64,000 bases of DNA from Cellulomonas sp. URHD0024 (GTDB lineage: Bacteria; Actinomycetota; Actinomycetes; Actinomycetales; Cellulomonadaceae): contig NZ_KE384505.1 of assembly GCF_000426185.1 (NCBI RefSeq), positions 187,741 to 251,740 on the forward strand. Direction: 5' to 3'. Of the stretch, positions 8,727 to 40,809 are shown one piece after another (the first letter of the stretch is position 1; each line of letters starts with the position of its first letter). A model generated the notes under the pieces. The model was not told where the DNA came from, ran no database searches, and worked only from the letters and a program-made list of their open reading frames with translations. The position numbers were made by a program, and so were the translations under genes.

Positions 8727-9256
8727 TGGCCACGGAGGCTCCTTCGCCCGGCGCTGCACCCGGCCCGCGCGGTCTGCCCCGCACGGGGATCGGGATCGAC
8801 GTGCACGCGTACGCGGCGGACCCTGTGCCCGGCGCCGTCCTGCACCTCGCTGGCCTCGCCTGGCCCGGTGAGCGGCCCCTGGAGGGCCATTCGGACGCCG
8901 ACGTGGCGGCGCACGCCTGCGCGGACGCGCTCCTGTCGGCGGCCGGCCTGGGTGACCTCGGGTCGAACTTCGGGACGTCCGAGCCGCAGTGGGCCGGCGC
9001 CGCCGGTGCGGTGCTGCTGGCGGAGGCGGCCTCGCGGGTGCGGGCTGCCGGGTTCGTCGTCGGGAACGTCGCCGTGCAGGTGATCGGGAACAGGCCGCGA
9101 CTGGGTCAGCGGCGGGCTGAGGCCGAGGCGGCACTGTCGGCGGCCGCCGGGGCACCCGTGAGCGTGTCCGCGACCACGACCGACGGGCTCGGGCTCACCG
9201 GCCGCGGGCAGGGCGTCGCGGCGATCGCCACCGCGCTCGTGGTGGCCGCAGACTGA
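8726..9256 (+). CDS. ispF: 2-C-methyl-D-erythritol 2,4-cyclodiphosphate synthase IspF
   Basis: A 176-residue trimeric zinc enzyme of the MEP pathway that cyclises CDP-methylerythritol phosphate. Metal and substrate residues are present in [19 protein letters not shown] and GDLGSNFG, and the C-terminal nucleotide-binding segment [15 protein letters not shown] is recognisable. The N-terminus has a short nonconserved extension of about 20 residues. The last 151 bp overlap, on the opposite strand, the 3' end of the EamA transporter gene, and a hexanucleotide repeat begins directly after the stop codon. Confidence 0.95.
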
Positions 9257-10215
9257 TCCGCGTCCGCGTCCGCGTCCGCGTCCGTGCCTGCGTCCGGGTC
9301 CGTGCCCGTGCCCGTCGCGACGGACCGGCGACGACGTGCCTGCGTGCTGCCCAGCAGCACCCCGCCCAGGACCAGCGCTCCCCATGCCAGCTCGGTCACG
9401 CTCGTGCGCTCGCCCAGCAGCAGGAACGACGCCCCGATCCCGACGACAGGCACCAGCATCGAGAACGGCGCGACGGTGCTCGACGGGTGCCGACCCATCA
9501 GGCCCGTCCAGAGCACGCCGCCTCCGAGGGTCGCGACGATGACGGTGTACACCAGGCCCACGAGCGCCAGCAGGCCCCGCGTGCTGGTCAGGCCGGTGAA
9601 CGCGTCGCTGATCTGCGCCGGACCCTCCACGGCGAGGGAGAGCGCGAGCATCGGCAGCGGTGGCACGACCGACATCCACAGCAGCAGCCGGATGGGCTCG
9701 TGCGGGCTCGCCTGCATCGCCTTGCGGCTGCCGAGGTTCCCGATCGCCCAGCCCAGCCCGGCCGCGAGCGTCAGCAGGACGGGGACGAGCGTGGCGCCGC
9801 CGGCCAGACCTGCGCGGTGCGCGGCGATGCCACCCAGGCCTGCCACCGCCACGAGGATGCCCAGACCCTGCCGAGCGGTCAGCCGTTCGCGCAGGAACGT
9901 CGCGGCCAGCACGACCGTGAAGGGTGCCGACGACTGCAGGACCAGCGACGCCAGCCCCGTCGGCATCCCGTTCGCCATGGCCAGGTACAGGAACACGAAC
10001 TGCAGGACGCCGAACCCGACCCCGTACAGCAGGATCCAGCGCCAGGGTGCCGAGGGTCGCGGGACCAGCAGCAGCGTCGGGACGGCCAGGATCGCGAACC
10101 GCAGCGCGACGAGGAAGAACGGCGGGAACTGCTGCAGCGACAGGTGGATGGCCGTGAAGTTGAGACCCCAGAGCACGGCGACGAGCACGGCGAGCAGGCG
10201 GTCGCGGGTGGCCAT
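9106..10215 (-). CDS. EamA/DMT family transporter with extended C-terminal tail
   Basis: A 369-residue inner-membrane exporter of the drug/metabolite superfamily. It has two EamA repeats with about ten membrane segments in the first 295 residues (start [18 protein letters not shown]). Family members normally stop near 300 residues. Here a low-complexity tail of about 70 residues, including alternating Asp-Ala encoded by a hexanucleotide repeat (9257-9316), runs on until a stop inside ispF. The substrate is unknown; amino acids or small metabolites are typical. It is divergent from a LysR gene 72 bp away, which probably regulates it. Confidence 0.88.
9257..9316 (+). repeat. Hexanucleotide tandem repeat in the exporter 3' end
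   Basis: About ten 6-bp units occur here; the first four are perfect TCCGCG and the rest are variants such as TCCGTG, CCTGCG and CCCGTG. The array begins on the base after the ispF stop and is read on the other strand as the Asp-Ala tail of the EamA protein. Copy-number change would not shift the frame. Confidence 0.85.
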
Positions 10216-10287
10216 GGAACGAGTCTCGGTCCGGTCTGCAGTTCAGCACCAGCGCAAGATCCTTATCCGACGATGTAGCGTTCCTAC

Positions 10288-11202
10288 ATGGACGCCCGCG
10301 CACTCGAGACGCTCCGGACCGTCGGGTCGCAGGGGGGCGTGACCGCCGCAGCGGCGGTCCTGCACCTCACGCCGTCCGCGGTCTCGCAGCAGGTGGCCGT
10401 GCTGCAGCGCGAGGTCGGCGTCCCCCTCACGGAGCGCGTCGGACGCGGCCTGCGGCTCACGCCCGCCGGCGAGGCGTTGGCGGTGGCCGGGCTCGACGTG
10501 GCAGTGGCCCTGGAACGGGCTCAGGCGGCCTGTGACGCCTTCCTGGAGCGTCCGAAGGGGACGGTGAGGGTCTCGGCGTTCCAGAGCGGTGCTGAGCTGC
10601 TCCTGCCCGGCCTGCTCACGCGCGTCGGCCGGCTCGGCGGCATCACGCTGGAGTGCACCGACGAGGACGTCGCCCAGGAGGACTTCGCCGCGCTGACCGA
10701 CCGGATCGACATCGTCGTCGCCCACCGGCCGGAGGGCTCGCCCGGCTGGCCCGGGGTGCGCGTCGTCCCGTTGCTGCGCGAACCCCTCGACGTCGCGGTC
10801 GCGCTCGACCACCCGCTCGCGGGGCGCACCGCGGTCGAGCCGGCCGACCTGGCCGACGCCGACTGGATCTCCGTCCGGGTCGGCTTCCCGATCGCCGCGC
10901 TCGTCACCGAGGTCGCCACCCGCGCGGGCACGGAGAGCGCGGGGACGGCGCCGCGCATCGTGCACCGGGTCAACGACTTCCACGTGGTCGAGGCTCTCGT
11001 CGGCGCCGGCCACGGGATCTCGCTGCTGCCGCGCTACACGTTCGGCGGCAGCACCCGTATCCGGCTCCTGCCGTTGGAGGGCGTGCGCGCGGGCCGTCGG
11101 ATCGACGCGCTCCTGCGTCGCGACCGTTTCGAGCGCGTCGTCGTGCGTCGCGTTCTGCACGAGCTGCAGACGCTGGCGGGCGAGATCGCCCCGGCACCCT
11201 GA
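10288..11202 (+). CDS. LysR family transcriptional regulator
   Basis: A 304-residue LysR-type regulator. The winged helix-turn-helix spans about residues 1-60 (ALETLRTVGSQGGVTAAAAVLHLTPSAVSQQ in pieces) and the periplasmic-binding-protein-like effector domain about 88-295. It is divergently placed next to the EamA exporter with only 72 bp between start codons, the usual arrangement for a LysR protein controlling its neighbour. The effector cannot be predicted from sequence. Confidence 0.93.
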   Translation: MDARALETLRTVGSQGGVTAAAAVLHLTPSAVSQQVAVLQREVGVPLTERVGRGLRLTPAGEALAVAGLDVAVALERAQAACDAFLERPKGTVRVSAFQSGAELLLPGLLTRVGRLGGITLECTDEDVAQEDFAALTDRIDIVVAHRPEGSPGWPGVRVVPLLREPLDVAVALDHPLAGRTAVEPADLADADWISVRVGFPIAALVTEVATRAGTESAGTAPRIVHRVNDFHVVEALVGAGHGISLLPRYTFGGSTRIRLLPLEGVRAGRRIDALLRRDRFERVVVRRVLHELQTLAGEIAPAP

Positions 11203-22518: not shown

Positions 22519-23646
<1,128 letters not shown>

Positions 23647-23825
23647 GACTGATCAGTCCCTTCACCGGCAGGTACGTGCCGGACGATCCGTTGTGAAGAG
23701 TGTCAAAGGTGTCTTCGATGACACGGACCGGATGAGGGTTGTCCATCGCGGCCCGCCGTCATCTTGCCACACCCGCGCGACACGTCCACAGGCCCACGTG
23801 AGCAGCGTCACACGATCGGGGCCGT

Positions 23826-25307
23826 TCACCCGAGTGCGACACCGGACCCGTCCTGGAACGTCACGACGAGCCGCCCGCCGTGCTCCTGGGCGTCGGCGAG
23901 GCTGCCGACGTCGGCGTGGAGCATCGACCGGAGGTCGGAGGTGGCGTCGGCGCGGCCGTCGCCGAGGTCCAGCGAGCGCAGCCGGAGGTCGTCCGTGAGG
24001 ACCACGACGTGCAGGGGATCGGCGCCCAGGTAGACGGGCGTCGCGTCGAGCCGGACCCGCCAGCGCTCGTCCCCCGTCCGGGCGTCGCGAGAGACGACGG
24101 ACGACGGTCCCGCGGCGATGACGGCGCCGTCCAGCACGAGCACCTCCCCGGCACGGCCGTCCGCCCGCCACAGCTCCTCGCCGGTACGGGCGTCGTCGGC
24201 GGCGACGCCCGTTGCCGTGCGGAGCAGGACGACGCCGGCCGCGCTGCCGTCGTCGACCGCCGGTACGACCTGCGGGCCGTCCACGGGCACGTGCTTCCCG
24301 CGCCGGGTGACCAGGACGCCCGCGGGCAGCGTGCTGCTCTGGAACGGCGCCCAGACGAGGGTCCCGGACCGGCCGAGCTCGAGCGAGCCGCCGGTCCCCA
24401 CCGACAGCGACCGCCGCGACGCACCGTCGGGCGACCACACCCATGCGTGCCCGTCGTCGTGGAGTAGGACCCGCGCCGGGTCGCTGGTCAGGGTCGCCGC
24501 CGTGTCGGTCGTGTCGACGCCGACCTGCAGCGGACCGGCTCCCTTCAGGGTCGGGGTGTGGTCCTGCCAGGCGGGCGCGCCGGTCTGCGGATCGGTCGCG
24601 CGGACGTCCCAGTGCCTGTGGGTCTCGTCGTCGGCGACGGGCTCCGCGATCACGAGGTGGCCGTCGCTCACCGCCCACAGCGAGCCGGCGGGCAGGATCT
24701 GGTGGGCGAGGACCGTGCCGTCCGTCGGGTCCAGGGCCATGAGCGGCGTTCCGACGGACAGCAGCTCCGGGCCGGACACGTCCGCGCCGCACACGGCAAC
24801 CGCGTCCGGGGGCCCCGACGCGCTCGCGCACCGGACCAGGACGGACGGGAAGGTCCCTCGGGCCTCGGGGAGCAGGGCGTCGTCGAAGGGGAACGGGGTG
24901 GACCACCGCAGGGCGCCGGTGTCCGGGTCGGTCCCGCGCAGCTCGACGTAGCCCGTCCGGGCCCGCGTACCGATCGTCCACCGGCCCGCGGTGTCGTCGG
25001 CGACGAGGGCGACGGACTCGGCGGGCGTGAAGTGCCACAGGGGGACGACGTGCCCCGGCAGGGGCTGCAGGACGCCGGGGACGTCGGCCAGGTACGCGAG
25101 CCGATCGCGCTCGCGGGCGTCGACCATCGTCTGCGCACCGACGAGGGCGATCACTGCGAGCACCGCGGCGACGACCAGCCACGCTGCTCGCCGCCGGATC
25201 CAGTCCCGTGGTGCAGCCGTGACGTCCGCGACCTCGGGCGGTCCGGCCTCGTCCATCGCGAGGACCTGGCGGTGCCCGCTGGTGCGCAAGCCGTCGGTCG
25301 GGCTCAT
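23826..25307 (-). CDS. Membrane-anchored PQQ-like beta-propeller protein (paralogue 3)
   Basis: A 493-residue protein: a cytoplasmic tail of about 40 residues, one membrane helix (WLVVAAVLAVIALVGAQ), then an extracytoplasmic repeat domain with PQQ/WD-like blades (for example GELLR-type strands in DARTGEELWRADG and DARTGDERWRV). It shares with its two upstream paralogues the membrane-proximal DARERDRLAYLADVPGV pattern. Family proteins of this sort act as scaffolds or sensors and most do not bind PQQ. The gene starts 10 bp after the previous stop, so the three form an operon. It has diverged most of the three; the molecular role is unknown. Confidence 0.82.
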   Translation of the reverse strand: MSPTDGLRTSGHRQVLAMDEAGPPEVADVTAAPRDWIRRRAAWLVVAAVLAVIALVGAQTMVDARERDRLAYLADVPGVLQPLPGHVVPLWHFTPAESVALVADDTAGRWTIGTRARTGYVELRGTDPDTGALRWSTPFPFDDALLPEARGTFPSVLVRCASASGPPDAVAVCGADVSGPELLSVGTPLMALDPTDGTVLAHQILPAGSLWAVSDGHLVIAEPVADDETHRHWDVRATDPQTGAPAWQDHTPTLKGAGPLQVGVDTTDTAATLTSDPARVLLHDDGHAWVWSPDGASRRSLSVGTGGSLELGRSGTLVWAPFQSSTLPAGVLVTRRGKHVPVDGPQVVPAVDDGSAAGVVLLRTATGVAADDARTGEELWRADGRAGEVLVLDGAVIAAGPSSVVSRDARTGDERWRVRLDATPVYLGADPLHVVVLTDDLRLRSLDLGDGRADATSDLRSMLHADVGSLADAQEHGGRLVVTFQDGSGVALG

Positions 25308-25317
25308 CGAGCGACCG

Positions 25318-26853
25318 TCATCCCAGGACGGCGACCGCGCCGTCGCTCATCCACACGAACAGTCGCGGGTCGCGCCCGCTCGACTGGAAGCTCTGCGCGA
25401 GCCGCGTCGGGCTACCCCCCGTCACGGCCTCGGTCAGGTCCTTGGACCATGCGAGCCGACCGTCGGTCAGGGCGTACGCCTCCAGCGAGATCTTCTTCCC
25501 CGGCACGAGCAGGTACCGGCCGTCGGTGGAGAGCTGGCGGGGCTGGTGATCGAGCGTGGTGGTCCAGTGCACCTTCCCCGACCGGGCGTCGACGGCGCTG
25601 AGCTCGTCGAACGAGGCGAGGTAGACGACGCCGTCGAGCAGCAGTGCGGCCGTGAGGGCGTCGGGCCGGTCCCAGAGCACGTCACCGGTCCCTGCGTCCC
25701 GGCCGGTGATGCCGATCCTCCCGGCGGGGCCGTCGCCGACCGTGAGAACCACGTCGGGGGCGGAACCGTCGTCCACGGACAGCCACGCGGCGGTCTGGGC
25801 CATCGACACCTCGGCCCCGTCGGCCAGCAGGAGCTTCCCCGTGTAGGCCGCACCCGACGAGAGCGAGCTCAGCACGTAGGCGCCCGCACGCGCACCCTGG
25901 ATCCACGAGCCAGGATCGAGCGGCTGGTCCCGCAGGAGCGTGCCGTCGCCGTCGAGGATCCACGCGTTGCCGTCGACGCTCAGCACGACCTGGTCGCCGA
26001 ACGTCTCCATGTTCGCGCCGCCCGAGGCGCTCGCGGCCTCCGGCCCGTCCTCGCGGCCCTGCACGTCGACCGTGGGCGTGGTGTACGTCCACAGCCGCGT
26101 CCCGTCGAGGGGGTCCGTCGCTGTCACGTTCCAGCGCACCGACCCGGCGTCCGTGCGGGCAGGGCCTCCGGTGTCGTCGACTCGTGAGGCCACGAGGATC
26201 GCCTCCGGTGCGAAGGCCACGTCGGACGTCCCGGCGACCCGGCGTTCGGACAGCACGTGCCCGTCCGACGGATCGAGCACCCAGATCGTCGAGTCGGGCA
26301 GCCCGACGATGTTCTGGCCGTACTGCACCGACGCGCACCCGGCGAGCGGTCGGCCGACGTGCTGGACCGCCTTGCAGCTGATCCACGCGCTCGGTATGAC
26401 GCCGTCCGGCTGCGGGTGCAGCCGCGGCAGCGTCACGGGTGTGGCCCACCTCGTCGCGCCGGTGTCGGGGTCGAGCGCGACCACGCGCACCAGCCCGGCA
26501 TCGTCCGCGGCGCCGCCCACCATGAGCCCGTCGACCATGGCCCCGCCCTGCATCACGGTGCCGAGCTCGGGAGGTGCCCGCCAGATCACGCCGATGTCGG
26601 AGCTGGCCGGCGGGACGACCCCGGGGACCTCGGCCAGTGCCGCGATGCGGTTCCGCTCCCGGGCGTCGAGGACGGACTGCGTGCCGACGAGCCCGAGAAC
26701 CGCCAGCACGAGCGCTGGCACGAGCCAGAGGGCGTGCCGACGAGGCCACGACCGCGCCGCCGGCGCGGCGCTCGGCGCTCCCCGAGCGGGCGCCGCTGGG
26801 ACGTGGACGTCGACGTCGTCGACGAGCTCGACCTCGCGCATCCGGCCGGTCAT
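25318..26853 (-). CDS. Membrane-anchored PQQ-like beta-propeller protein (paralogue 2)
   Basis: A 511-residue single-pass protein with the same layout: a short acidic cytoplasmic tail, a membrane helix (HALWLVPALVLAVLGLVGTQ), then the conserved ARERNRIAALAEVPGVV linker and a beta-propeller of about seven blades. MREVELVDDVDV at the N-terminus is nearly shared with paralogue 1, and the last residues (VWMSDGAVAVLG) match its ending VWMDDGGVAVLG. I chose the ATG at 26853; upstream in-frame sequence to 27003 overlaps the preceding gene. It is separated from paralogue 1 by 49 bp. Confidence 0.85.
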   Translation of the reverse strand: MTGRMREVELVDDVDVHVPAAPARGAPSAAPAARSWPRRHALWLVPALVLAVLGLVGTQSVLDARERNRIAALAEVPGVVPPASSDIGVIWRAPPELGTVMQGGAMVDGLMVGGAADDAGLVRVVALDPDTGATRWATPVTLPRLHPQPDGVIPSAWISCKAVQHVGRPLAGCASVQYGQNIVGLPDSTIWVLDPSDGHVLSERRVAGTSDVAFAPEAILVASRVDDTGGPARTDAGSVRWNVTATDPLDGTRLWTYTTPTVDVQGREDGPEAASASGGANMETFGDQVVLSVDGNAWILDGDGTLLRDQPLDPGSWIQGARAGAYVLSSLSSGAAYTGKLLLADGAEVSMAQTAAWLSVDDGSAPDVVLTVGDGPAGRIGITGRDAGTGDVLWDRPDALTAALLLDGVVYLASFDELSAVDARSGKVHWTTTLDHQPRQLSTDGRYLLVPGKKISLEAYALTDGRLAWSKDLTEAVTGGSPTRLAQSFQSSGRDPRLFVWMSDGAVAVLG

Positions 26854-26902
26854 GGGGCGGACGGTACGCCTCGGTCCTGTCAGCGGCCAGCGGCCGGGGC
26901 GC

Positions 26903-28441
26903 TCATCCGAGGACGGCCACCCCACCGTCGTCCATCCACACGTAGAGCCGTGGGACGTGCCACGACCACTGGAAGCCCTCGACGTAGATCGGGTCGCGGT
27001 CACCGGCCGCCTCGGCCAGCAGGTCCTTGGACCAGGCGAACCGACCGTTCGACAACGCGTAGGCGCGCAGCGAGACGCCCAGCCCGGGCACGAGCAGGTA
27101 GCGCCCGTCGGTGTCGAGCTGCTGCGGCTGGAAGTCGACGCGGGTCGACCACCGGATGCGTCCGGTGGTCGCGTCGACGGCTTGGATGGCCTTGTCGGTC
27201 GACAGGTACAGCACGCCGTCGAGCAGGATCCCCGCCGTCACGTTCTGGTCGCGGTGCCACAGTCGCTTGCCGGTCGAGGCCTCGCGTCCGGTGAGCCCGA
27301 CCGGCCCGGCGGCTCCGTCGGAGACGGTGAACAGCATGCCCGGGGCCGAGCCGTCGTCTATCGCGAGCCAGGCCGCCGTCTCGTCGATCCGGAGCGACGA
27401 GCCGTCGGCCAGCCGGAGCGTCCCTGGGGGAGCCTCTGCCGAGGAGTAGGTGCTGTCGAGGTACACACCGGATCGCACGCCCTGGATCCAGGCGCCCGGG
27501 CCGAGGGGGATGTCGCGCACGACGTGCCCGTCGTCGCGCAGGATCCACGCGTGCAGGTCGACGGCGAGCAGGAGCTCGTCCTCGAACGTCTGCAGCGACG
27601 CCGTGCCCGTCGCGCTGGCGGCGTTCGGGTAGTCCTCGCGACTGAGCACGTCGACCACGGGGCTCGTGGTGGTCCACCGGGCCGCACCCGAGACCAGGTC
27701 GGTCGCGGTGGTGCGCCAGCGGACCGTCTCGGCATCCGCAGGGGGAGGCCCGTCGCCGTCGGGGGCGATCCGGGTGGCGACGACCGCGGCGCCGTCCGCG
27801 AACGCGACGCCCGCTCCGCCCGGGACCACCGCGTGCCACACGATCGAGCCGTCTGCGGGGTCGACGGCCCACACGCCCGACTCCGGGAGGCCGACGATGT
27901 CGTCGCCGTACTGCTGGGACACGCACCCCACCAGCGACCGGTCGCCGTGCTCGACCGGGACGCAGCCCACCCCCGAGGTCGGCCGGCCGCCGTCTGGGGT
28001 CACGTGCGCCGCGGGCACCTGGACGGGCGTGGTCCAGCGCACCTCGCCGGTGTCGATGCTCAGCGCGACCAGGTCGATGCCGTGGTCGGAGGAGGCCTTG
28101 CCACCGATCAGCAGCCCGTCGACCGAGGTTCCGCCCTGCATGACCGTCGCCAGGTCGGGGTCGGCGCGCCAGATCACCCCGATGTCGGGACCCGTCGGCC
28201 GGACCACGCCGGGGATCGCCGCCAGCGCCTCGAGACGCGACTGCTCGCGCGCGTCGGCGACGAGCTGCGTGCCGACGAGGGCCAGCAGGGCGACGACCAC
28301 GGACGGCACGAGCCACCGCGCGTGGCGCCGGGCCCACGAGCGTCCGGCTGGGACGGCGCCGCCCGCCTCCGGGCCCGCGGGCAGCGTTGCGCTCTCGTCG
28401 ACAGCCTCAACGAGCTCGACCTCACGCATCCGGTCGGCCAT
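26903..28441 (-). CDS. Membrane-anchored PQQ-like beta-propeller protein (paralogue 1)
   Basis: The first gene of the tandem array, 512 residues. N-terminal tail, membrane helix (WLVPSVVVALLALVGTQ), linker DAREQSRLEALAAIPGVV, then repeated blades with AVDPADGSIVWHA, ATDLVSGAARWTT and DATTGRIRWSTR. Four cysteines in the blade region near residues 150-170 (GVGCVPVEHGDRSLVGCVS) are kept in paralogue 2 and could form disulfides outside the cell. Its close similarity to paralogue 2 over the whole length shows recent duplication. The function is unknown; a sensor or envelope scaffold is a guess. Confidence 0.85.
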   Translation of the reverse strand: MADRMREVELVEAVDESATLPAGPEAGGAVPAGRSWARRHARWLVPSVVVALLALVGTQLVADAREQSRLEALAAIPGVVRPTGPDIGVIWRADPDLATVMQGGTSVDGLLIGGKASSDHGIDLVALSIDTGEVRWTTPVQVPAAHVTPDGGRPTSGVGCVPVEHGDRSLVGCVSQQYGDDIVGLPESGVWAVDPADGSIVWHAVVPGGAGVAFADGAAVVATRIAPDGDGPPPADAETVRWRTTATDLVSGAARWTTTSPVVDVLSREDYPNAASATGTASLQTFEDELLLAVDLHAWILRDDGHVVRDIPLGPGAWIQGVRSGVYLDSTYSSAEAPPGTLRLADGSSLRIDETAAWLAIDDGSAPGMLFTVSDGAAGPVGLTGREASTGKRLWHRDQNVTAGILLDGVLYLSTDKAIQAVDATTGRIRWSTRVDFQPQQLDTDGRYLLVPGLGVSLRAYALSNGRFAWSKDLLAEAAGDRDPIYVEGFQWSWHVPRLYVWMDDGGVAVLG

Positions 28442-35836: not shown

Positions 35837-36508
35837 TCAGTTCGTCGGACCGGTCTGCTCCAGAAGGCGCAGGGCCGCACTCACCCGAGGGTTCCGCTGC
35901 GGGTCGCTGTCGATACCCAGCGTCGCGTACATCCCGTTGACGTGGTTCTGTACGGACTTCTCCGTGATGCCGAGCTTGTCGCCGATGCCGGAGTTCGACA
36001 GCCCCGCCGCCAGCAGCCGCAGAACCTCGTACTGCCGGTCGGTCAGGCGAGCCACCGCGGAACCGGCGCGCGGCGTCATGCGCGCCAGGAGAGCCGGGTC
36101 GAGGACCGTCTCGCCGACGGCGGCTGCCCTGACAGCCCCGACGAGGACCTCCTCGCTGGTGGAGGAGTTCTTGGACAGGTAGCACCACCCCGCCGCGACG
36201 TCGGGGGGCAGGTCCAGCAGAAGGTCCATGGCGTCGTGCGCGGAGAGCAGCAGGATGCCCAGCCCGGGCATGCGACGACGCAGCGTGACGCCCAGCGCGA
36301 TGCCGTTGCCGTCGGGCAGGTCGATGTCGAGGATCGCGACGTCGACGAGGCCCGGACGGATGGCCCGGGCGGCCTCGGTCGCGGTGCCGACCGCGACGAC
36401 GGTCTCGAGGCCGAGCGACGAGTCGAGCGTGTGCTCGAGCATCGACCGGAACAACGGCTGGTCCTCGACGACGGCGACGCGGATCGGTTGGTGGCTGGGT
36501 GCGCTCAT
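35837..36508 (-). CDS. NarL/LuxR family response regulator
   Basis: A 223-residue regulator. The receiver domain has acidic residues at about 15-16, phosphoacceptor D61 (ILDIDLPDG) and a lysine near KNSSTSEEVL. A LuxR-type helix-turn-helix follows (LTDRQYEVLRLLAAGLSNSGI, then EKSVQNHVNGMYATLG). The ATG at 36508 is chosen over a longer in-frame GTG at 36550. It is divergent from the adjacent sensor-like gene (125 bp), which is probably its partner, and may control the secreted protein-signal peptidase-lectin genes beyond it. Confidence 0.92.
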   Translation of the reverse strand: MSAPSHQPIRVAVVEDQPLFRSMLEHTLDSSLGLETVVAVGTATEAARAIRPGLVDVAILDIDLPDGNGIALGVTLRRRMPGLGILLLSAHDAMDLLLDLPPDVAAGWCYLSKNSSTSEEVLVGAVRAAAVGETVLDPALLARMTPRAGSAVARLTDRQYEVLRLLAAGLSNSGIGDKLGITEKSVQNHVNGMYATLGIDSDPQRNPRVSAALRLLEQTGPTN

Positions 36509-36633
36509 CGGCACCAGTATCGTCGGCAATCGGGTCCGGCGTACGCCCACGCGCCCGTCTCACCCGGACGAAACCGCGGGCAATTCGCGGATAACGGCTG
36601 GTGAACGGCCGAAGACGGACGAAGGAGTGGTCG

Positions 36634-37803
36634 ATGACGATGCCGCCGACGGACGCGGCCGCCGCCGTCGCCGCGCGCCTGGACGACCGACGTGACCGGC
36701 GCACCCTTCTGCGCGGCACCGCCGGGATCGCCCTCGGCTACGGCATCGGGGCGACGCTGCAGGCCACCTACGTGTACTCCGTCTACGTCACCAACTGGAC
36801 CGTGGCGCCCGTGAGCACCCGGCTGCTGGCGAACGTCGTCGCGGTCACCGGGCTCGTCGGGTGCCTCGCGCTCATCCGTGCACACCGCGCCCGGACGACC
36901 ACGTTGATGCTCGGCGCAGTCCTCGTCGCGGCGATGGTCGGGGCGTCGGCGCGGTTCGGGACGCAGATCGTGCTCGGCGTGTACGAGGCCCCCGCCGCCT
37001 CGGTCCGGGACGCAGAGCTGTTCAGCGGCTTCCTCATGGGCACGATCTCCGGCCTGATCGGCATGTGGGCGATGGTCTCGCGGCGTGCGATGCGTGAGCA
37101 GATCCGGGTTGCCACCCGCGACGCCGTCCATATCGAGGTCGCGGTCAAGGCGCTCGAGCAGGAGGAGATCCGGGTGCGTCGGGCGGTCGCCGAGGGTCTG
37201 CACGGCACGCTCCAGTCGAAGCTCGTCCTCGTCGACGCGCGTCTGGCGTCGTTGCTCTCGCGGCACGGCCAGGACGCGCTGGACGACGAGAGCCGGACGA
37301 GCGTCGAGTGGATCCGCGCCGAGCTCGACGCGGCCCGCGAGATCGACGTCCGGGAGATGAGTCGTCTGCTGTACCCCGATCGGCTCGAGCTCGGGCTCGT
37401 GCCGGCGCTGCGCGCGCTGCTCGGCCGGATCCCTGCGAGCATCGCGACCCAGCTCGTGGTCAGCGACTCCGTGCGGGTCCTGGACGACCCCGCGAGCGGG
37501 TCGCTGACGCTCAGCGAGCGCCTGCTGGCTGTGCGGGTGGTCGAGGAGGGCATCACGAACTCCCTGAAGCACGGGCCCGCAGGGTCCGTCAGGGTGGTGC
37601 TGGACACGAGCGACGGGCTCCTGCACGTGGGTGTCGAGAACGACGGTGAGCTCTACGACCCGGTGTCCGCCGGCGTGGCCTCGGGTACGGCACGGCTCGA
37701 CACGCGGTTGTCGCTGGTCGGCGGACGACTGGAGCTGACCCCCGGAAGTGGTAGGGGCGCCCATCTGGACGCATGGCTACCGCTCGGCACGGGCGCGCTC
37801 TAG
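36634..37803 (+). CDS. NarX-like sensor histidine kinase, atypical
   Basis: A 389-residue membrane sensor with about four hydrophobic segments in the first 160 residues, then a coiled stretch and a HisKA_3-like dimerisation segment where RRAVAEGLHGTLQSKL offers a candidate phosphoacceptor His. The ATPase part keeps an N-box-like VVEEGITNSLKHG and a G-box-like VENDGELYD, but the second glycine-rich box is weak. GAAGGAG lies 7 bases before the ATG at 36634. Divergent from the LuxR-type regulator, it is the likely cognate sensor. The signal is unknown. Confidence 0.85.
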   Translation: MTMPPTDAAAAVAARLDDRRDRRTLLRGTAGIALGYGIGATLQATYVYSVYVTNWTVAPVSTRLLANVVAVTGLVGCLALIRAHRARTTTLMLGAVLVAAMVGASARFGTQIVLGVYEAPAASVRDAELFSGFLMGTISGLIGMWAMVSRRAMREQIRVATRDAVHIEVAVKALEQEEIRVRRAVAEGLHGTLQSKLVLVDARLASLLSRHGQDALDDESRTSVEWIRAELDAAREIDVREMSRLLYPDRLELGLVPALRALLGRIPASIATQLVVSDSVRVLDDPASGSLTLSERLLAVRVVEEGITNSLKHGPAGSVRVVLDTSDGLLHVGVENDGELYDPVSAGVASGTARLDTRLSLVGGRLELTPGSGRGAHLDAWLPLGTGAL

Positions 37804-37869
37804 CAATTCCCGAGTGCCTCTTTGTCGCATTCGGTCGAAACGCCCGGGGTGAAAGAAACGGGCATCTCG

Positions 37870-37897
37870 GGCCCCCCAGGTGCTGCCACCTAGGGCC
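37870..37897 (+). other. Structured leader or attenuator hairpin before the secreted-protein gene
   Basis: GGCCC plus AGGTG pairs with CACCT plus GGGCC (bulges CCC and A) around a CTGC loop, 67 bp after the kinase stop. There is no T-run. The 206-bp gap to the next gene also holds a GCCGGC-AGTA-GCCGGC inverted repeat (around 37967-37982) and an AGGAG ribosome site at 37999-38003. It may be a terminator for the kinase or part of the next transcript's leader. Confidence 0.4.
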
Positions 37898-38009
37898 ATC
37901 TGAGTGAAGTTGCCGAAGACACCAACGTTCACCGCAGCCGTCCAACGGTCGTCCGTGAGCGGGTGCCGGCAGTAGCCGGCCCCCGGCCGCTTCCTCATCA
38001 GGAGATCCC

Positions 38010-38438
38010 ATGAGCACCACGTCCAAGAAGTCCCGCAAGGGCCTTGCGATCGGTCTGGCCATCCTCGGCATCGCGGGCCTGTCGCTCGCCTCTGCGTCGG
38101 CCCTGAACCTGGGCGGTACCGCGCAGCTGCAGGCCGGCGTCAAGGACCTCACCGGCTGCCAGCCCGCAGCCACGCCGGTGGTCGTCGGGTTCACGCCTCC
38201 GAGCATCCCGGTCGGCGGAAGCGCGTACACGTCGACCACCCTGACGCTGTCGGGCATCGACGCCCTGTGCTCCGCTCCCGTCGCCGCGAAGTACAAGGTC
38301 TCGCTGCTGAGCTCGACGAACGCCCTGCTCGGCACCGAGTTCTCGGGCACCCTCGCGGGCACCTCCCTGTCGCTGACGCTGACTGCTGCTCAGACCCCGG
38401 ACGTGATCTCGCGCGTCGCGGTGACGTTCTACAACTGA
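38010..38438 (+). CDS. Small SipW-type secreted protein
   Basis: A 142-residue exported protein. The signal sequence has an N-terminal KKSRK, a hydrophobic core (GLAIGLAILGIAGLSLASASA) and a likely cleavage after ASA. The mature ~110 residues are beta-rich with two cysteines (near 50 and 88) and no other domain I recognise. Followed at once by a SipW-type signal peptidase, it resembles the TasA/camelysin arrangement, in which a dedicated peptidase matures fibre or surface proteins. A similar Cys-strand pattern occurs in the N-terminal half of the lectin gene downstream. Confidence 0.82.
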   Translation: MSTTSKKSRKGLAIGLAILGIAGLSLASASALNLGGTAQLQAGVKDLTGCQPAATPVVVGFTPPSIPVGGSAYTSTTLTLSGIDALCSAPVAAKYKVSLLSSTNALLGTEFSGTLAGTSLSLTLTAAQTPDVISRVAVTFYN

Positions 38439-38463
38439 TCGAACGACCCGCGGACCTGATGTC

Positions 38464-39096
38464 GTGACCGAGACGGCCCTGCTCGCCGCACCTGACGCCC
38501 CGGCCGGGCGTCGGGTGCGGCGCGTTGTCGTCTCGGTCCTGTTCTGGTCCTTCGCGGTCGCGGCGGCGGTGCTGCTGTGGCCCGCGAGCCTCGGCGGGTG
38601 CACGCAGGTCATCGTCGTCTCGGGCGAGTCCATGAAGCCGACGTACGACACCGGGGACCTCGTGGTCGCGCGGTGTGGTGAGCCGCGGATCGGCGACGTC
38701 GTCGTCTACCGGCCCGACGGGATGCACGGCCACGTCATCCACCGACTGGTCGGTGGTGACGGCGCCGACGGGTGGCAGGTCCAGGGCGACAACAACTCCT
38801 GGGTCGACCCGTTCAGGCCGACGAACGCCGACGTGGTCGGCATCGCGCAGTTCCACCTGCCGCGAGTCGGGCTGGTCACCACCGTGCTCGAGTCGCCCCT
38901 CGTGTGGGCATCGCTGCTGGTCACCGCCTGTGCGGTGTTCCTCTGGCCGCGCGGCGAGGACGAGGAGACGCCGGGGGCCGACGACACGGAGACCGGCGCG
39001 GCCGACGAGACCGAGACCGGCGGGGCCGACGAGACCGGGACGGCCGACGAGCAGGATGACGCCATCGCGGTCGACGACCGGTCCGTGCTCCCGTGA
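38464..39096 (+). CDS. SipW-type signal peptidase I
   Basis: A 210-residue membrane protease. Two membrane segments (about 22-42 and 145-165) flank the catalytic domain. The serine is in SGESMKPTYDTGDLV. The second catalytic residue is the His in GHVIHRLV where most bacterial peptidases have Lys, so it is the ER/SipW class; VQGDNNSWVDPF is the third conserved box. An acidic, Glu/Thr/Ala-rich C-terminal tail is unusual. It probably cleaves the two flanking secreted proteins. The GTG at 38464 follows the previous stop by 25 bp. Confidence 0.92.
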   Translation: MTETALLAAPDAPAGRRVRRVVVSVLFWSFAVAAAVLLWPASLGGCTQVIVVSGESMKPTYDTGDLVVARCGEPRIGDVVVYRPDGMHGHVIHRLVGGDGADGWQVQGDNNSWVDPFRPTNADVVGIAQFHLPRVGLVTTVLESPLVWASLLVTACAVFLWPRGEDEETPGADDTETGAADETETGGADETGTADEQDDAIAVDDRSVLP

Positions 39097-39974
39097 GGGC
39101 GCGCGCGACCGCAGGCCGGATCGTGGGGCTGCTCGCCGTCGTCGCCCTGATCGTCGTGTCGCTCGCGGGCGAGTCGGTGGCCAGCGCCTCGAAGCTCACC
39201 CTCACCTCCGCGCTCAAGCCGTTCAGCACGAGCCAGAGCCGCTGCACGGGCCAGGCGGTCGCCGTCACGACACCGGTCACCTCGAACGCGACGAACCAGC
39301 TGCTCGTCACGAACCTCGACGCGACGAGGTGCACCGGCAAGTCCGTCGTCGTGACCGTGTACGACCCCGCGGAGACCACGTGGACCGCCGCGCAGCAGGC
39401 GTCCAGCACGGCGAACCTCACCTCGGCGTCCCAGACCTTCACGTCGACTACGAGCTTCGTCCCCGACGCGACCCTCAAGGCCTACGTGACGATCGACGGC
39501 TGGCCGGTCACCGCGACGTTCACCTCGGTGGTCACGCGGCTCGTGCAGCTCACCGACCGCCACGGCAAGTGCCTCGACGTGCGGAACCGGACCTGGACCG
39601 TCGGCAACGCCGTGCAGATCTACACGTGCAACAAGACGCCCGCGCAGAAGTGGTCGCTCATGGCCAACGGCACGCTGCGCGCCAACGACTTCTGCGTCCA
39701 GGTCCCGAGCGCGACGAACAACGTGGGGCTCGTGATCGCGACGTGCACCACGGCGGCCAACCAGCGCTGGACCATGGACACCACACGCACGGTGAACCCG
39801 TACTTCCAGCTCGTCACCGGCCTGGCCTGGACGCCCCCGACCGCCGGCGGCTGCCTCACCGTGCCGGGCGGGACCACGACCGACGCGACTCAGGTGGTCG
39901 CCGCGACGTGCACGAACCTGAACCAGAACCAGTACTGGCAGTTCACCGACTGGACCTGGGCCGACGCACCGTAG
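39093..39974 (+). CDS. Secreted protein with C-terminal ricin-type (CBM13) lectin domain
   Basis: A 293-residue exported protein. Signal peptide (about 1-32, GLLAVVALIVVSLAG core), an N-terminal beta domain (about 34-150) with a Cys pair like that of the small secreted protein, and a C-terminal beta-trefoil (about 150-290). QxW-type motifs (QKWS, QRWT, QYWQ) mark the three sugar-binding subdomains, and several Cys pairs occur. The start overlaps the signal-peptidase stop (GTGA). The lectin presumably binds cell-wall or plant-type polysaccharide. Confidence 0.9.
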   Translation: MRARATAGRIVGLLAVVALIVVSLAGESVASASKLTLTSALKPFSTSQSRCTGQAVAVTTPVTSNATNQLLVTNLDATRCTGKSVVVTVYDPAETTWTAAQQASSTANLTSASQTFTSTTSFVPDATLKAYVTIDGWPVTATFTSVVTRLVQLTDRHGKCLDVRNRTWTVGNAVQIYTCNKTPAQKWSLMANGTLRANDFCVQVPSATNNVGLVIATCTTAANQRWTMDTTRTVNPYFQLVTGLAWTPPTAGGCLTVPGGTTTDATQVVAATCTNLNQNQYWQFTDWTWADAP

Positions 39975-40001: not shown

Positions 40002-40026
40002 CAGCTCAGTCCAGAGGGCTGAGCTG
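40002..40026. terminator. Convergent terminator hairpin
   Basis: CAGCTCAG plus TCC pairs with GGG plus CTGAGCTG (one T-G wobble) around AGA. It spans the stop codon of the SGNH gene and lies 27 bp after the lectin stop, so it can serve both convergent genes. Confidence 0.6.
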
Positions 40027-40809
40027 GGGCCGCTTCGGCACCCGCAGGTCGCCGCTCGAACGCCCGCGCAGCCGCCGGGTCGCCCACGGGTAGACGTGCA
40101 CGCGCACCCACGCGGCGTCCTGGCGGGCCCGCGTCAGCCGGGGTGTCGGTGGCAGGGGGGTCAGCGGGTCGTCCCACGCCGGGTTGTCGGGGTCGAGCCC
40201 GAGGCCGACGAGGGCCGCCTGCGCGACGCGTGCGTGTCCCTCGCCGGTGAGGTGGATCCGGTCCTCGGACCACATGCGCGGGTCGGCCAGCGACCGCATG
40301 CCCCACGTGTCCAGCACGTACGCGCCGTGACGTCGGGCCATCGACCAGATCAGCGAGTTGTAGACGCCGACGCGGCTGCGGGTGGTGCTGAACACGGCGC
40401 TGCCGAAGGAGTCGTACCCCGTGCCGAGCAGCACGTCGACACCGGCCTCACGCAGCCGCACGACGCGGGCCTCGAGGTTGCGTGCCAACCGGTCGATGTC
40501 CGTGCTGGGGCGCAGGATGTCGTTGCCGCCGCCGATCATGCTGACCAGGTCCGGCTTCATCGACAGGGCGACGGGCAGCTGGTCCACGAGGATCGAGCGG
40601 AGCTTCTTGCCGCGGATGGCCAGGTTCGCGTACTGGAGCGTCGACTCGCCGGCTGACTTGCGGCGCTCGGACAGGTGCGACGCCAGCAGGTCGGCCCAGC
40701 CCCGCTGCGGGGCCTCCACGCCGTCGGGGGCGTCCCAGAGTCCTTCGGTGAACGAGTCTCCGATCGCGACGTAGCGGGACCAACGGGGTACGGGGGAGTG
40801 CTCTGTCAC
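40006..40809 (-). CDS. SGNH/GDSL hydrolase
   Basis: A 267-residue esterase of the SGNH fold. Block I AIGDSFTEG carries the nucleophilic Ser, block III is GGGNDIL, and block V DRIHLTGEGH supplies the Asp-His pair. No signal peptide is visible, so it is probably intracellular. A basic C-terminal tail (about 215-267) is nonconserved. The substrate is unknown; esters of sugars or lipids are typical. It is convergent with the lectin gene. Confidence 0.92.
   Translation of the reverse strand: MTEHSPVPRWSRYVAIGDSFTEGLWDAPDGVEAPQRGWADLLASHLSERRKSAGESTLQYANLAIRGKKLRSILVDQLPVALSMKPDLVSMIGGGNDILRPSTDIDRLARNLEARVVRLREAGVDVLLGTGYDSFGSAVFSTTRSRVGVYNSLIWSMARRHGAYVLDTWGMRSLADPRMWSEDRIHLTGEGHARVAQAALVGLGLDPDNPAWDDPLTPLPPTPRLTRARQDAAWVRVHVYPWATRRLRGRSSGDLRVPKRPQLSPLD

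What the first reader, a model, noticed from the sequence alone, without database searches (positions are those of the whole stretch)
35837..39974. Two-component pair next to a SipW peptidase, small secreted protein and ricin lectin
A NarL-type regulator and atypical sensor lie beside a small exported protein, a His-type (SipW) signal peptidase and a secreted lectin. The small protein and the lectin N-terminus share a Cys-strand pattern (two cysteines flanking V-rich strands), suggesting one domain family presented alone and fused to a sugar-binding trefoil. Together they look like a regulated surface-fibre or adhesion module.
Basis: partly seen in the sequence, partly recalled or inferred. 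Interest (0 to 1): 0.6.

Follow-up and report, generated by a model that had tools for sequence, protein, structure and literature searches.

The report
Swappable surface-protein cassette under one switch
A conserved two-gene sensor switch in Cellulomonas bacteria sits beside a slot that holds one of two quite different sets of exported proteins, each ending in a changeable and possibly sugar-binding tip, so that related species seem to swap the whole set while keeping the same control.

Summary
Beside a divergent NarL-type regulator and atypical sensor kinase lie a small exported protein (S), a Ser/His SipW-type signal peptidase and a ricin lectin (X). S and the X N-terminal domain are one family: profile-profile E 3.6e-10 on the mature parts alone, both predicted as Ig/Fn3-like sandwiches. 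No Pfam, NCBIfam or PDB sequence match names it.

HK-S-SipW-X order is kept in the family, but the lectin is the exception: 2 of 25 scanned X proteins carry it. At the same HK-SGNH slot, 10 of 65 named loci hold an unrelated cassette (other exported proteins, another SipW, an LPXTG-like protein, often a ricin lectin); 6 hold none. Terminal proteins of all 10 match X C-terminal domains. In one close pair the cassette is exchanged from start codon to stop codon between flanks about 92% identical.

A bipartite element (GGGTGAAAg, then GGGTGcTGcCACCC 31 nt on) precedes both cassette types, occurs once in the 4.47-Mb genome in strict form, and was not found in 15 cassettes without the kinase pair: probably the regulator's operator.

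Best reading: a two-component-controlled, SipW-dependent surface assembly with exchangeable chassis and tip. Fibre formation is inferred, not shown.

The parts
35837..36508 (-). NarL/FixJ-type response regulator
   Evidence: PF00072 51.7 bits, PF00196 46.9 bits; 71-93% identical to syntenic orthologues
36634..37803 (+). atypical membrane sensor histidine kinase, divergent from the regulator
   Evidence: HATPase_c sub-threshold; closest NCBIfam models UhpB and MctS, E 8e-10 and 1.6e-9, far below cut-offs; dimerisation His and N-box Asn invariant in 65 of 65
37847..37891 (+). bipartite conserved element, probable operator: GGGTGAAAG at 37847 and AGGTGCTGCCACCT at 37878-37891
   Evidence: only match of the strict pattern in the 4.47-Mb genome; conserved before both cassette types; not found as a pair in 15 cassettes without the two-component pair
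38010..38438 (+). S: small exported two-Cys protein, Ig/Fn3-like sandwich, unannotated family
   Evidence: family alignment with invariant C50 and C87; AlphaFold2 model, domain pLDDT about 86-94 in blocks of ten; no Pfam, NCBIfam or PDB sequence match
38464..39096 (+). SipW-type (Ser/His) signal peptidase
   Evidence: TIGR02228 above cut-off; SGESM and VIHR in the sequence
39093..39974 (+). X: secreted protein with S-type N-terminal domain and C-terminal ricin-B lectin
39180..39533 (+). X N-terminal S-type domain (about residues 30-147)
   Evidence: hhalign to S family; AlphaFold2 domain pLDDT about 87-98 in blocks of ten
39543..39938 (+). ricin-B beta-trefoil lectin domain, three QxW repeats (read in the sequence), exchangeable tip
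   Evidence: PF00652 E 1.3e-19, residues 151-282
40006..40809 (-). SGNH/GDSL hydrolase, usual right border of the cassette slot; no role in the system claimed
   Evidence: PF13472 E 6.4e-26; synteny; absent beside the cassette in L132, L137, L161, L163

Best explanation
A surface-assembly operon of the SipW-dependent kind, controlled by the divergent two-component pair. The kinase senses an unknown envelope or outside signal and phosphorylates the regulator, which binds the element at 37847-37891 and drives the downstream cassette (S, SipW, X, and in part of the relatives T). S and X leave through Sec with short hydrophobic signal sequences; the co-encoded Ser/His peptidase trims them near the conserved ASAxxLxL motif. 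S, an Ig/Fn3-like two-Cys domain, is the repeating or main subunit. X carries the same domain as a docking end and shows an exchangeable C-terminal domain outward, a ricin lectin here. The locus is a slot: a second, unrelated chassis with the same tip repertoire replaces this one in relatives under the same regulator and element. Shown by computation: domain homology, synteny, cassette exchange, shared tips, conservation of the element. Inferred: processing by this SipW, regulator binding, polymerisation (perhaps by donor strand, as in TasA), and glycan binding.
For: Domain homology and similar predicted folds. Order RR-HK-S-SipW-X in relatives. S next to SipW in 18 of 20 loci fetched from the order-wide search; in 16 of these 18 no RR/HK pair of this kind was found in the stretch. 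SipW-X in-frame fusions in 3 of those 20. Terminal proteins of 10 of 10 type-2 cassettes match X C-terminal domains, E 3e-42 to 1.2e-4. A type-2 ricin protein passes TIGR04088, the SipW-dependent signal peptide model (20.1 against cut-off 19). Element. Exchange with breakpoints near start and stop codon. At least 6 changes of the type-2 label forced by well-supported branches of the RR+HK tree.
Against: S has no detectable sequence match to TasA/camelysin families, and S and type-2 exported proteins align only in the signal peptide. Foldseek gave no PDB match below E 0.001 for either model, and the best VIA-align Z of 7.0 and 5.9 are in the range of common arrangements. No sortase motif was found in window S or X, so how the product is held on the cell is unknown. 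The strict element is missed in 18 of 56 filled gaps; some of these are visible variants or inverted blocks, but L226, which has the pair, shows only a loose palindrome, and L225 and L161 only one block. The looser pattern also hits elsewhere in several genomes. No expression, binding or microscopy data exist.
Confidence: 0.6

Rival explanations
1. S and X are secreted, soluble binding proteins (for example scavenging or enzyme-targeting lectin factors) that need the dedicated peptidase but do not polymerise.
For: No sortase signal in window S or X; AlphaFold2 predicts compact monomer domains; ricin-type domains are widespread in the genus (29 of 81 genomes match the window ricin domain at E<=1e-8).
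Against: Small exported proteins clustered with a dedicated SipW form fibres in Bacillus (TasA/CalY, PMC9674648 and PMC4292775, passages read); S-type genes occur in tandem copies in 6 of 8 further loci fetched from the phylum, with SipW in the fetched stretch in 5 of 8; one relative's third protein has an LATTG-type tail read by eye (L223).
Confidence: 0.25
2. A bacteriocin-like or competition system: variable tips are a toxin or receptor repertoire, and the exchange reflects an arms race.
For: Fast divergence of S and X (median identity 40% of 41 and 35% of 18 matches) against RR 77% and SGNH 69%; repeated exchange. Marginal toxin-named hits: Ntox47 E 0.0063 in 1 of 30 S proteins, CDtoxinA E 0.003 in a type-2 ricin protein, both probably chance or trefoil likeness.
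Against: No toxin family among Pfam hits at E<=0.1 listed for 25 X proteins; no immunity-type gene constant in the cassette by gene order.
Confidence: 0.07
3. The element before the cassette is a structured leader RNA and not a DNA operator.
For: GGGTG-CACCC can pair; the outer pair is A-T in place of G-C in 4 of 38 sites, though A-C in 8.
Against: No Rfam match at E<=10; in the C. hominis group block 1 reads in inverted orientation (read in rows), which suits DNA binding; the element follows the two-component pair and not the cassette; 31-nt spacing is close to three helical turns (recalled).
Confidence: 0.1

Closest known systems
tapA-sipW-tasA operon of Bacillus subtilis (PMC9674648 and PMC10151520, passages read)
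   Same: Small cluster of exported beta-sandwich proteins with a dedicated SipW peptidase; a minor Ig-fold partner with a disulfide (TapA) beside a major subunit (TasA).
   Different: S and its relatives are not matched by TasA/camelysin models; control here is by a divergent two-component pair, not SinR; X carries an exchangeable C-terminal domain.
sipW-tasA-calY region of Bacillus cereus (PMC4292775, passages read)
   Same: SipW with cognate exported proteins needed for fibres and biofilm; no TapA needed.
   Different: Different subunit family; no swap of chassis in the passages read.
SipW-dependent-type signal peptide proteins, TIGR04088
   Same: Type-2 cassettes at the same slot carry them: one protein above cut-off and three below it among 10 proteins scanned.
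   Different: Window S and its 29 relatives give no TIGR04088 hit at E<=1 in the list shown.
NarL/UhpA-UhpB/NarX-type two-component pairs
   Same: RR domain make-up; kinase closest to UhpB/MctS-type models.
   Different: All equivalog cut-offs listed are missed by far; kinase has HG in place of the usual HD after the His (consensus recalled).
Ricin-B lectin (PF00652) modules of secreted actinobacterial enzymes (recalled)
   Same: Beta-trefoil with three QxW repeats.
   Different: Fused to an S-type domain, not to an enzyme; among X proteins seen only in the window and its sister species.

Membership tests
SipW/ER-type signal peptidase (TIGR02228) | score above curated cut-off | tested here: met
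   63.8 against 51.85 bits
SipW/ER-type signal peptidase (TIGR02228) | Ser/His in place of Ser/Lys catalytic pair | tested here: met
   window SGESM and VIHR; G-x-S-M and HR in 49 of 49 orthologues
Bacillus SipW equivalog (NF046067) | score above curated cut-off | tested here: not met
   23.9 against 190 bits
TasA/camelysin-type SipW substrates | sequence match to a Pfam or NCBIfam model of that kind | tested here: not met
   no such family at E<=1 for 30 members; 6 further proteins (5 S-type, 1 T-type) without one in NCBIfam at E<=0.1
TasA/camelysin-type SipW substrates | beta-sandwich that polymerises by donor strand | tested here: inconclusive
   Ig/Fn3-like model with a low-confidence N-terminus after the signal peptide; no fibre test possible
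NarL/FixJ response regulators | receiver plus GerE HTH | tested here: met
   both above gathering score; receiver Asp and Lys invariant in 25 rows
NarX/UhpB-type histidine kinases | HATPase_c above gathering score | tested here: not met
   22.2 against 26.4 bits
NarX/UhpB-type histidine kinases | conserved phosphoacceptor His and N-box Asn | tested here: met
   invariant in 65 of 65 rows
Ricin-B lectin | PF00652 above gathering score | tested here: met
   71.0 against 29 bits
Ricin-B lectin | glycan binding | not testable with these tools
   needs a binding assay
sortase-assembled pili | LPXTG-like wall-sorting signal on subunits | tested here: not met
   no Gram_pos_anchor hit for window S or X at E<=1

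The most novel reading that the evidence does not exclude
One chromosomal slot works as an exchange site for whole surface-assembly systems: two unrelated SipW-dependent chassis are swapped from start codon to stop codon under one conserved two-component switch and operator, drawing on one shared repertoire of tip domains. The S family is a phylum-wide, so far unnamed class of SipW-processed subunits of Actinomycetota that assembles by donor strand.
Probability: 0.45. Interest if true: 0.8.

Novelty: new variant of a known kind. Interest (0 to 1): 0.64.

Why it matters
The SipW-dependent fibres in the papers seen here are from Bacillus. This gives an unannotated subunit family found across Actinomycetota with its peptidase, partner, regulator and probable operator, so function can be tested directly. 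The start-to-stop exchange of unrelated chassis under one control element, with shared tip domains, offers a natural case of modular replacement of a cell-surface system, in a genus known for breaking down plant polymers (recalled), where attachment to substrate may matter.

Tried and rejected
Sigma-70 promoter and terminator scans: nothing found. Rfam on the window: only tRNA-Thr and msiK at gathering level; nothing at 37760-38040 at E<=10, so a known leader RNA was rejected. S, X N-domain and payload profiles against PDB sequences: no credible hit (hits at E 0.03-0.9 to reductases and dehydrogenases were rejected). Foldseek and VIA-align: generic Ig/Fn3 and similar matches; TasA did not appear among the rows shown, which excludes nothing. 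Ricin as the fixed sugar-binding part: rejected. Homology of S with type-2 exported proteins: only the signal peptide aligned. Source of the window ricin domain: its genus-wide matches outside the sister species are 36-48% identical, mostly over partial lengths, and 30-34% to type-2 ricin proteins over full length, so the source was not traced. Literature: nine searches listed no paper whose title or abstract concerns SipW systems in Cellulomonas or this family; the library is open-licence only and I did not read all papers listed.

Limits: my gene finder is home-made; it called no S in L210 and L214 and missed some regulators, which tblastn found. The named-genome scan needs one of two exact peptide patterns in the regulator and keeps the best 80 of 103, so absence from it means nothing. 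Many loci and one search are the same species, so slot counts use alone. Rows left out before those counts: 15 of 80 loci with regulators at 58% identity or less; within the 65, 3 truncated and 1 without the kinase. The tree is the quick kind, with long branches flagged. Cassettes were read from gene order, not from transcripts.
Full report
What is there. In the window the regulator (35837-36508, minus) and kinase (36634-37803, plus) diverge; S, SipW and X follow the kinase in one direction with gaps of 206 nt and 25 nt and a 4-nt overlap. Profile scans name the regulator (receiver plus GerE), SipW (TIGR02228 above cut-off) and the ricin domain, and nothing in S or the X N-terminus. An SGNH hydrolase gene closes the slot on the right.

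One domain family. Alignments of 30 S and 29 X N-domains share a short signal ending in ASAxxLxL, two cysteines and the strand pattern between them. Profile comparison gives E 1.4e-15, or 3.6e-10 without signal peptides, against at most 0.25% probability in 20 shuffles. A third small protein, T, present after X in 20 of 44 type-1 loci, belongs to the same family (S against T, 96.7%, E 4.4e-10; X against T weaker, 71%, 31 columns). AlphaFold2 models of S (mean pLDDT 76) and the X N-domain (84) show six strands and a short helix at the second Cys in the same order; S has one more strand before, X a short extra helix and two more strands after; in S the stretch just after the signal peptide is below pLDDT 50, in X about 55-61. 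PDB comparisons place both in common Ig/Fn3-like arrangements with no specific relative.

Synteny and spread. S-type proteins were found in 47 of 81 genus genomes with the single window sequence, the window-type SipW (E at most 1.7e-43; the next best is 5.5e-26) in 50 of 81, counted from the rows. Order RR-HK-S-SipW-X holds in most of the loci drawn; L080 and L081, for example, have a shorter third gene. With the S profile, 32 of 396 genomes of the order and 8 of 396 of the phylum have matches, the window's own genome included in both. In 18 of 20 loci fetched from the order search S is next to SipW; the gene finder called no S in the other two. In 16 of the 18 no such two-component pair was found in the stretch. 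Three of the 20 loci have SipW and X fused in one frame (L218, L228, L229). In 8 loci fetched from more distant families, S-type genes are tandem in 6 and a SipW lies in the stretch in 5.

Two cassettes in one slot. A scan of named genomes with the regulator family gave 80 loci, 65 of them at 61% identity or more: Cellulomonas, Pengzhenrongella, Flavimobilis, Sanguibacter and a few others. Of these 65: 44 type 1 (S-SipW-X; some cut by a contig end), 10 type 2, 6 with nothing recognised between HK and SGNH, 1 with only a decayed SipW, 3 truncated, 1 without the kinase in the stretch. Type 2 holds one or two exported proteins with SipW-type signals (TIGR04088 below cut-off for two of those scanned, not listed for two more), a different SipW (30% identical in profile alignment), a protein with an LPXTG-like tail just below cut-off in the one scanned and one or two terminal proteins. 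S and the type-2 subunits are unrelated apart from the signal peptide. In L138 a decayed type-1 SipW stands next to a type-2 cassette; in L111 and L115 type 1 lies left of SGNH and type-2 genes right of it.

Shared tips. Of 75 distinct X-type C-termini, 70 fall in one single-linkage group together with the terminal proteins of all 10 type-2 cassettes; 2 are ricin (window and its sister), 3 are single. Each type-2 terminal protein has a type-1 match, from 58% identity (L104 with L048) down to 26-27% for L123 and L138, E 3e-42 to 1.2e-4. Ricin lectins occur in type-2 cassettes of five loci (L104, L105, L106, L119, L141). Profiles of the two main tip groups match nothing credible in PDB; in Pfam only Pro-rich_19 appears, marginally, in 3 of 14 members of one group. 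What these tips bind is unknown.

Exchange. On the RR+HK tree (65 rows, 62 labelled) the three states need 10 changes; well-supported branches force at least 6 for type 2. The pair L103 (type 1) and L104 (type 2) is 94% identical in the HK-cassette gap and about 92% in the last 300 nt of HK; identity falls to about 40% within the first codons of the cassette. At the other end it is 78-82% in the 80 nt around the stop codon of the last gene and about 92% through SGNH. The swap thus kept the control element and ribosome site.

Element. The gap before the cassette holds GGGTGAAAg and GGGTGcTGcCACCC. A strict search finds both in 38 of 56 filled gaps and 0 of 6 empty ones; start-to-start spacing is 31 nt in 31 of 38. 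In 1.08 Mb of loci 34 of 35 hits lie in these gaps. A strict pattern occurs once in the window's genome; a looser one gives 3 there and hits in 50 of 81 genus genomes against 5 of 81 for the reversed control, with a good part of these hits plainly elsewhere in the genomes. None of 15 cassettes in loci without the pair has both blocks, though three have a loose match to one; second cassettes beyond SGNH lack the 31-nt arrangement, L141's having an overlapping loose match. Several C. hominis-group gaps show block 1 in inverted form (rows). L226, with the pair, shows only a loose palindrome. I read the element as the regulator's binding site; this is not shown.

Mechanism and comparison. In Bacillus, SipW trims TasA and TapA, TasA polymerises by an N-terminal donor strand, and TapA is an Ig-fold starter with a disulfide (PMC9674648, PMC10151520, passages read). 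The anatomy here suits the same plan with other parts: S as subunit, X as end piece with a tip. The family test is failed by sequence, so 'works like' is claimed and 'is a TasA' is not.

Noticed in passing
L218:5143-6448, L228:5639-6908, L229:4429-5731: SipW and X fused in one open frame of 422-434 aa in three genomes of another family: a direct link between peptidase and X.
   Followed up: partly
L129:5065-5505, L138:5103-5531, L093:3837-4422: SipW-like reading frames that have lost the catalytic Ser region beside the kinase; same kind of remnant in three species.
   Followed up: partly
L223:5934-6483: Third protein of an S-SipW cluster ends in an LATTG-type sortase tail (motif read by eye).
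   Followed up: no
L113, L118, L141, L148: A second type-1-like cassette beyond SGNH, without the 31-nt element.
   Followed up: partly
L161:3670-5507 and 8829-10755: Sanguibacter suarezii carries two S-SipW-X cassettes, one on either side of the regulator.
   Followed up: no
window 23650-23708 (-): msiK cis-regulatory RNA (Rfam RF01747) upstream of the gene at 22519-23646, which reads like an ABC-transporter ATPase (by eye).
   Followed up: no
G000:C4:220765, C15:11584, C3:48836 (L097-L099): Three further weak SipW-like matches in the same genome; no S-type or type-2 exported-protein gene matched in the 9-kb stretches around them.
   Followed up: partly
window 23826-28441 (-): Three adjacent genes for similar-looking proteins with one N-terminal membrane helix, perhaps a tandem duplication (read).
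   Followed up: no
L135: Record titled Cellulosimicrobium cellulans groups within the Cellulomonas hominis clade on the RR+HK tree; perhaps mislabelled.
   Followed up: no
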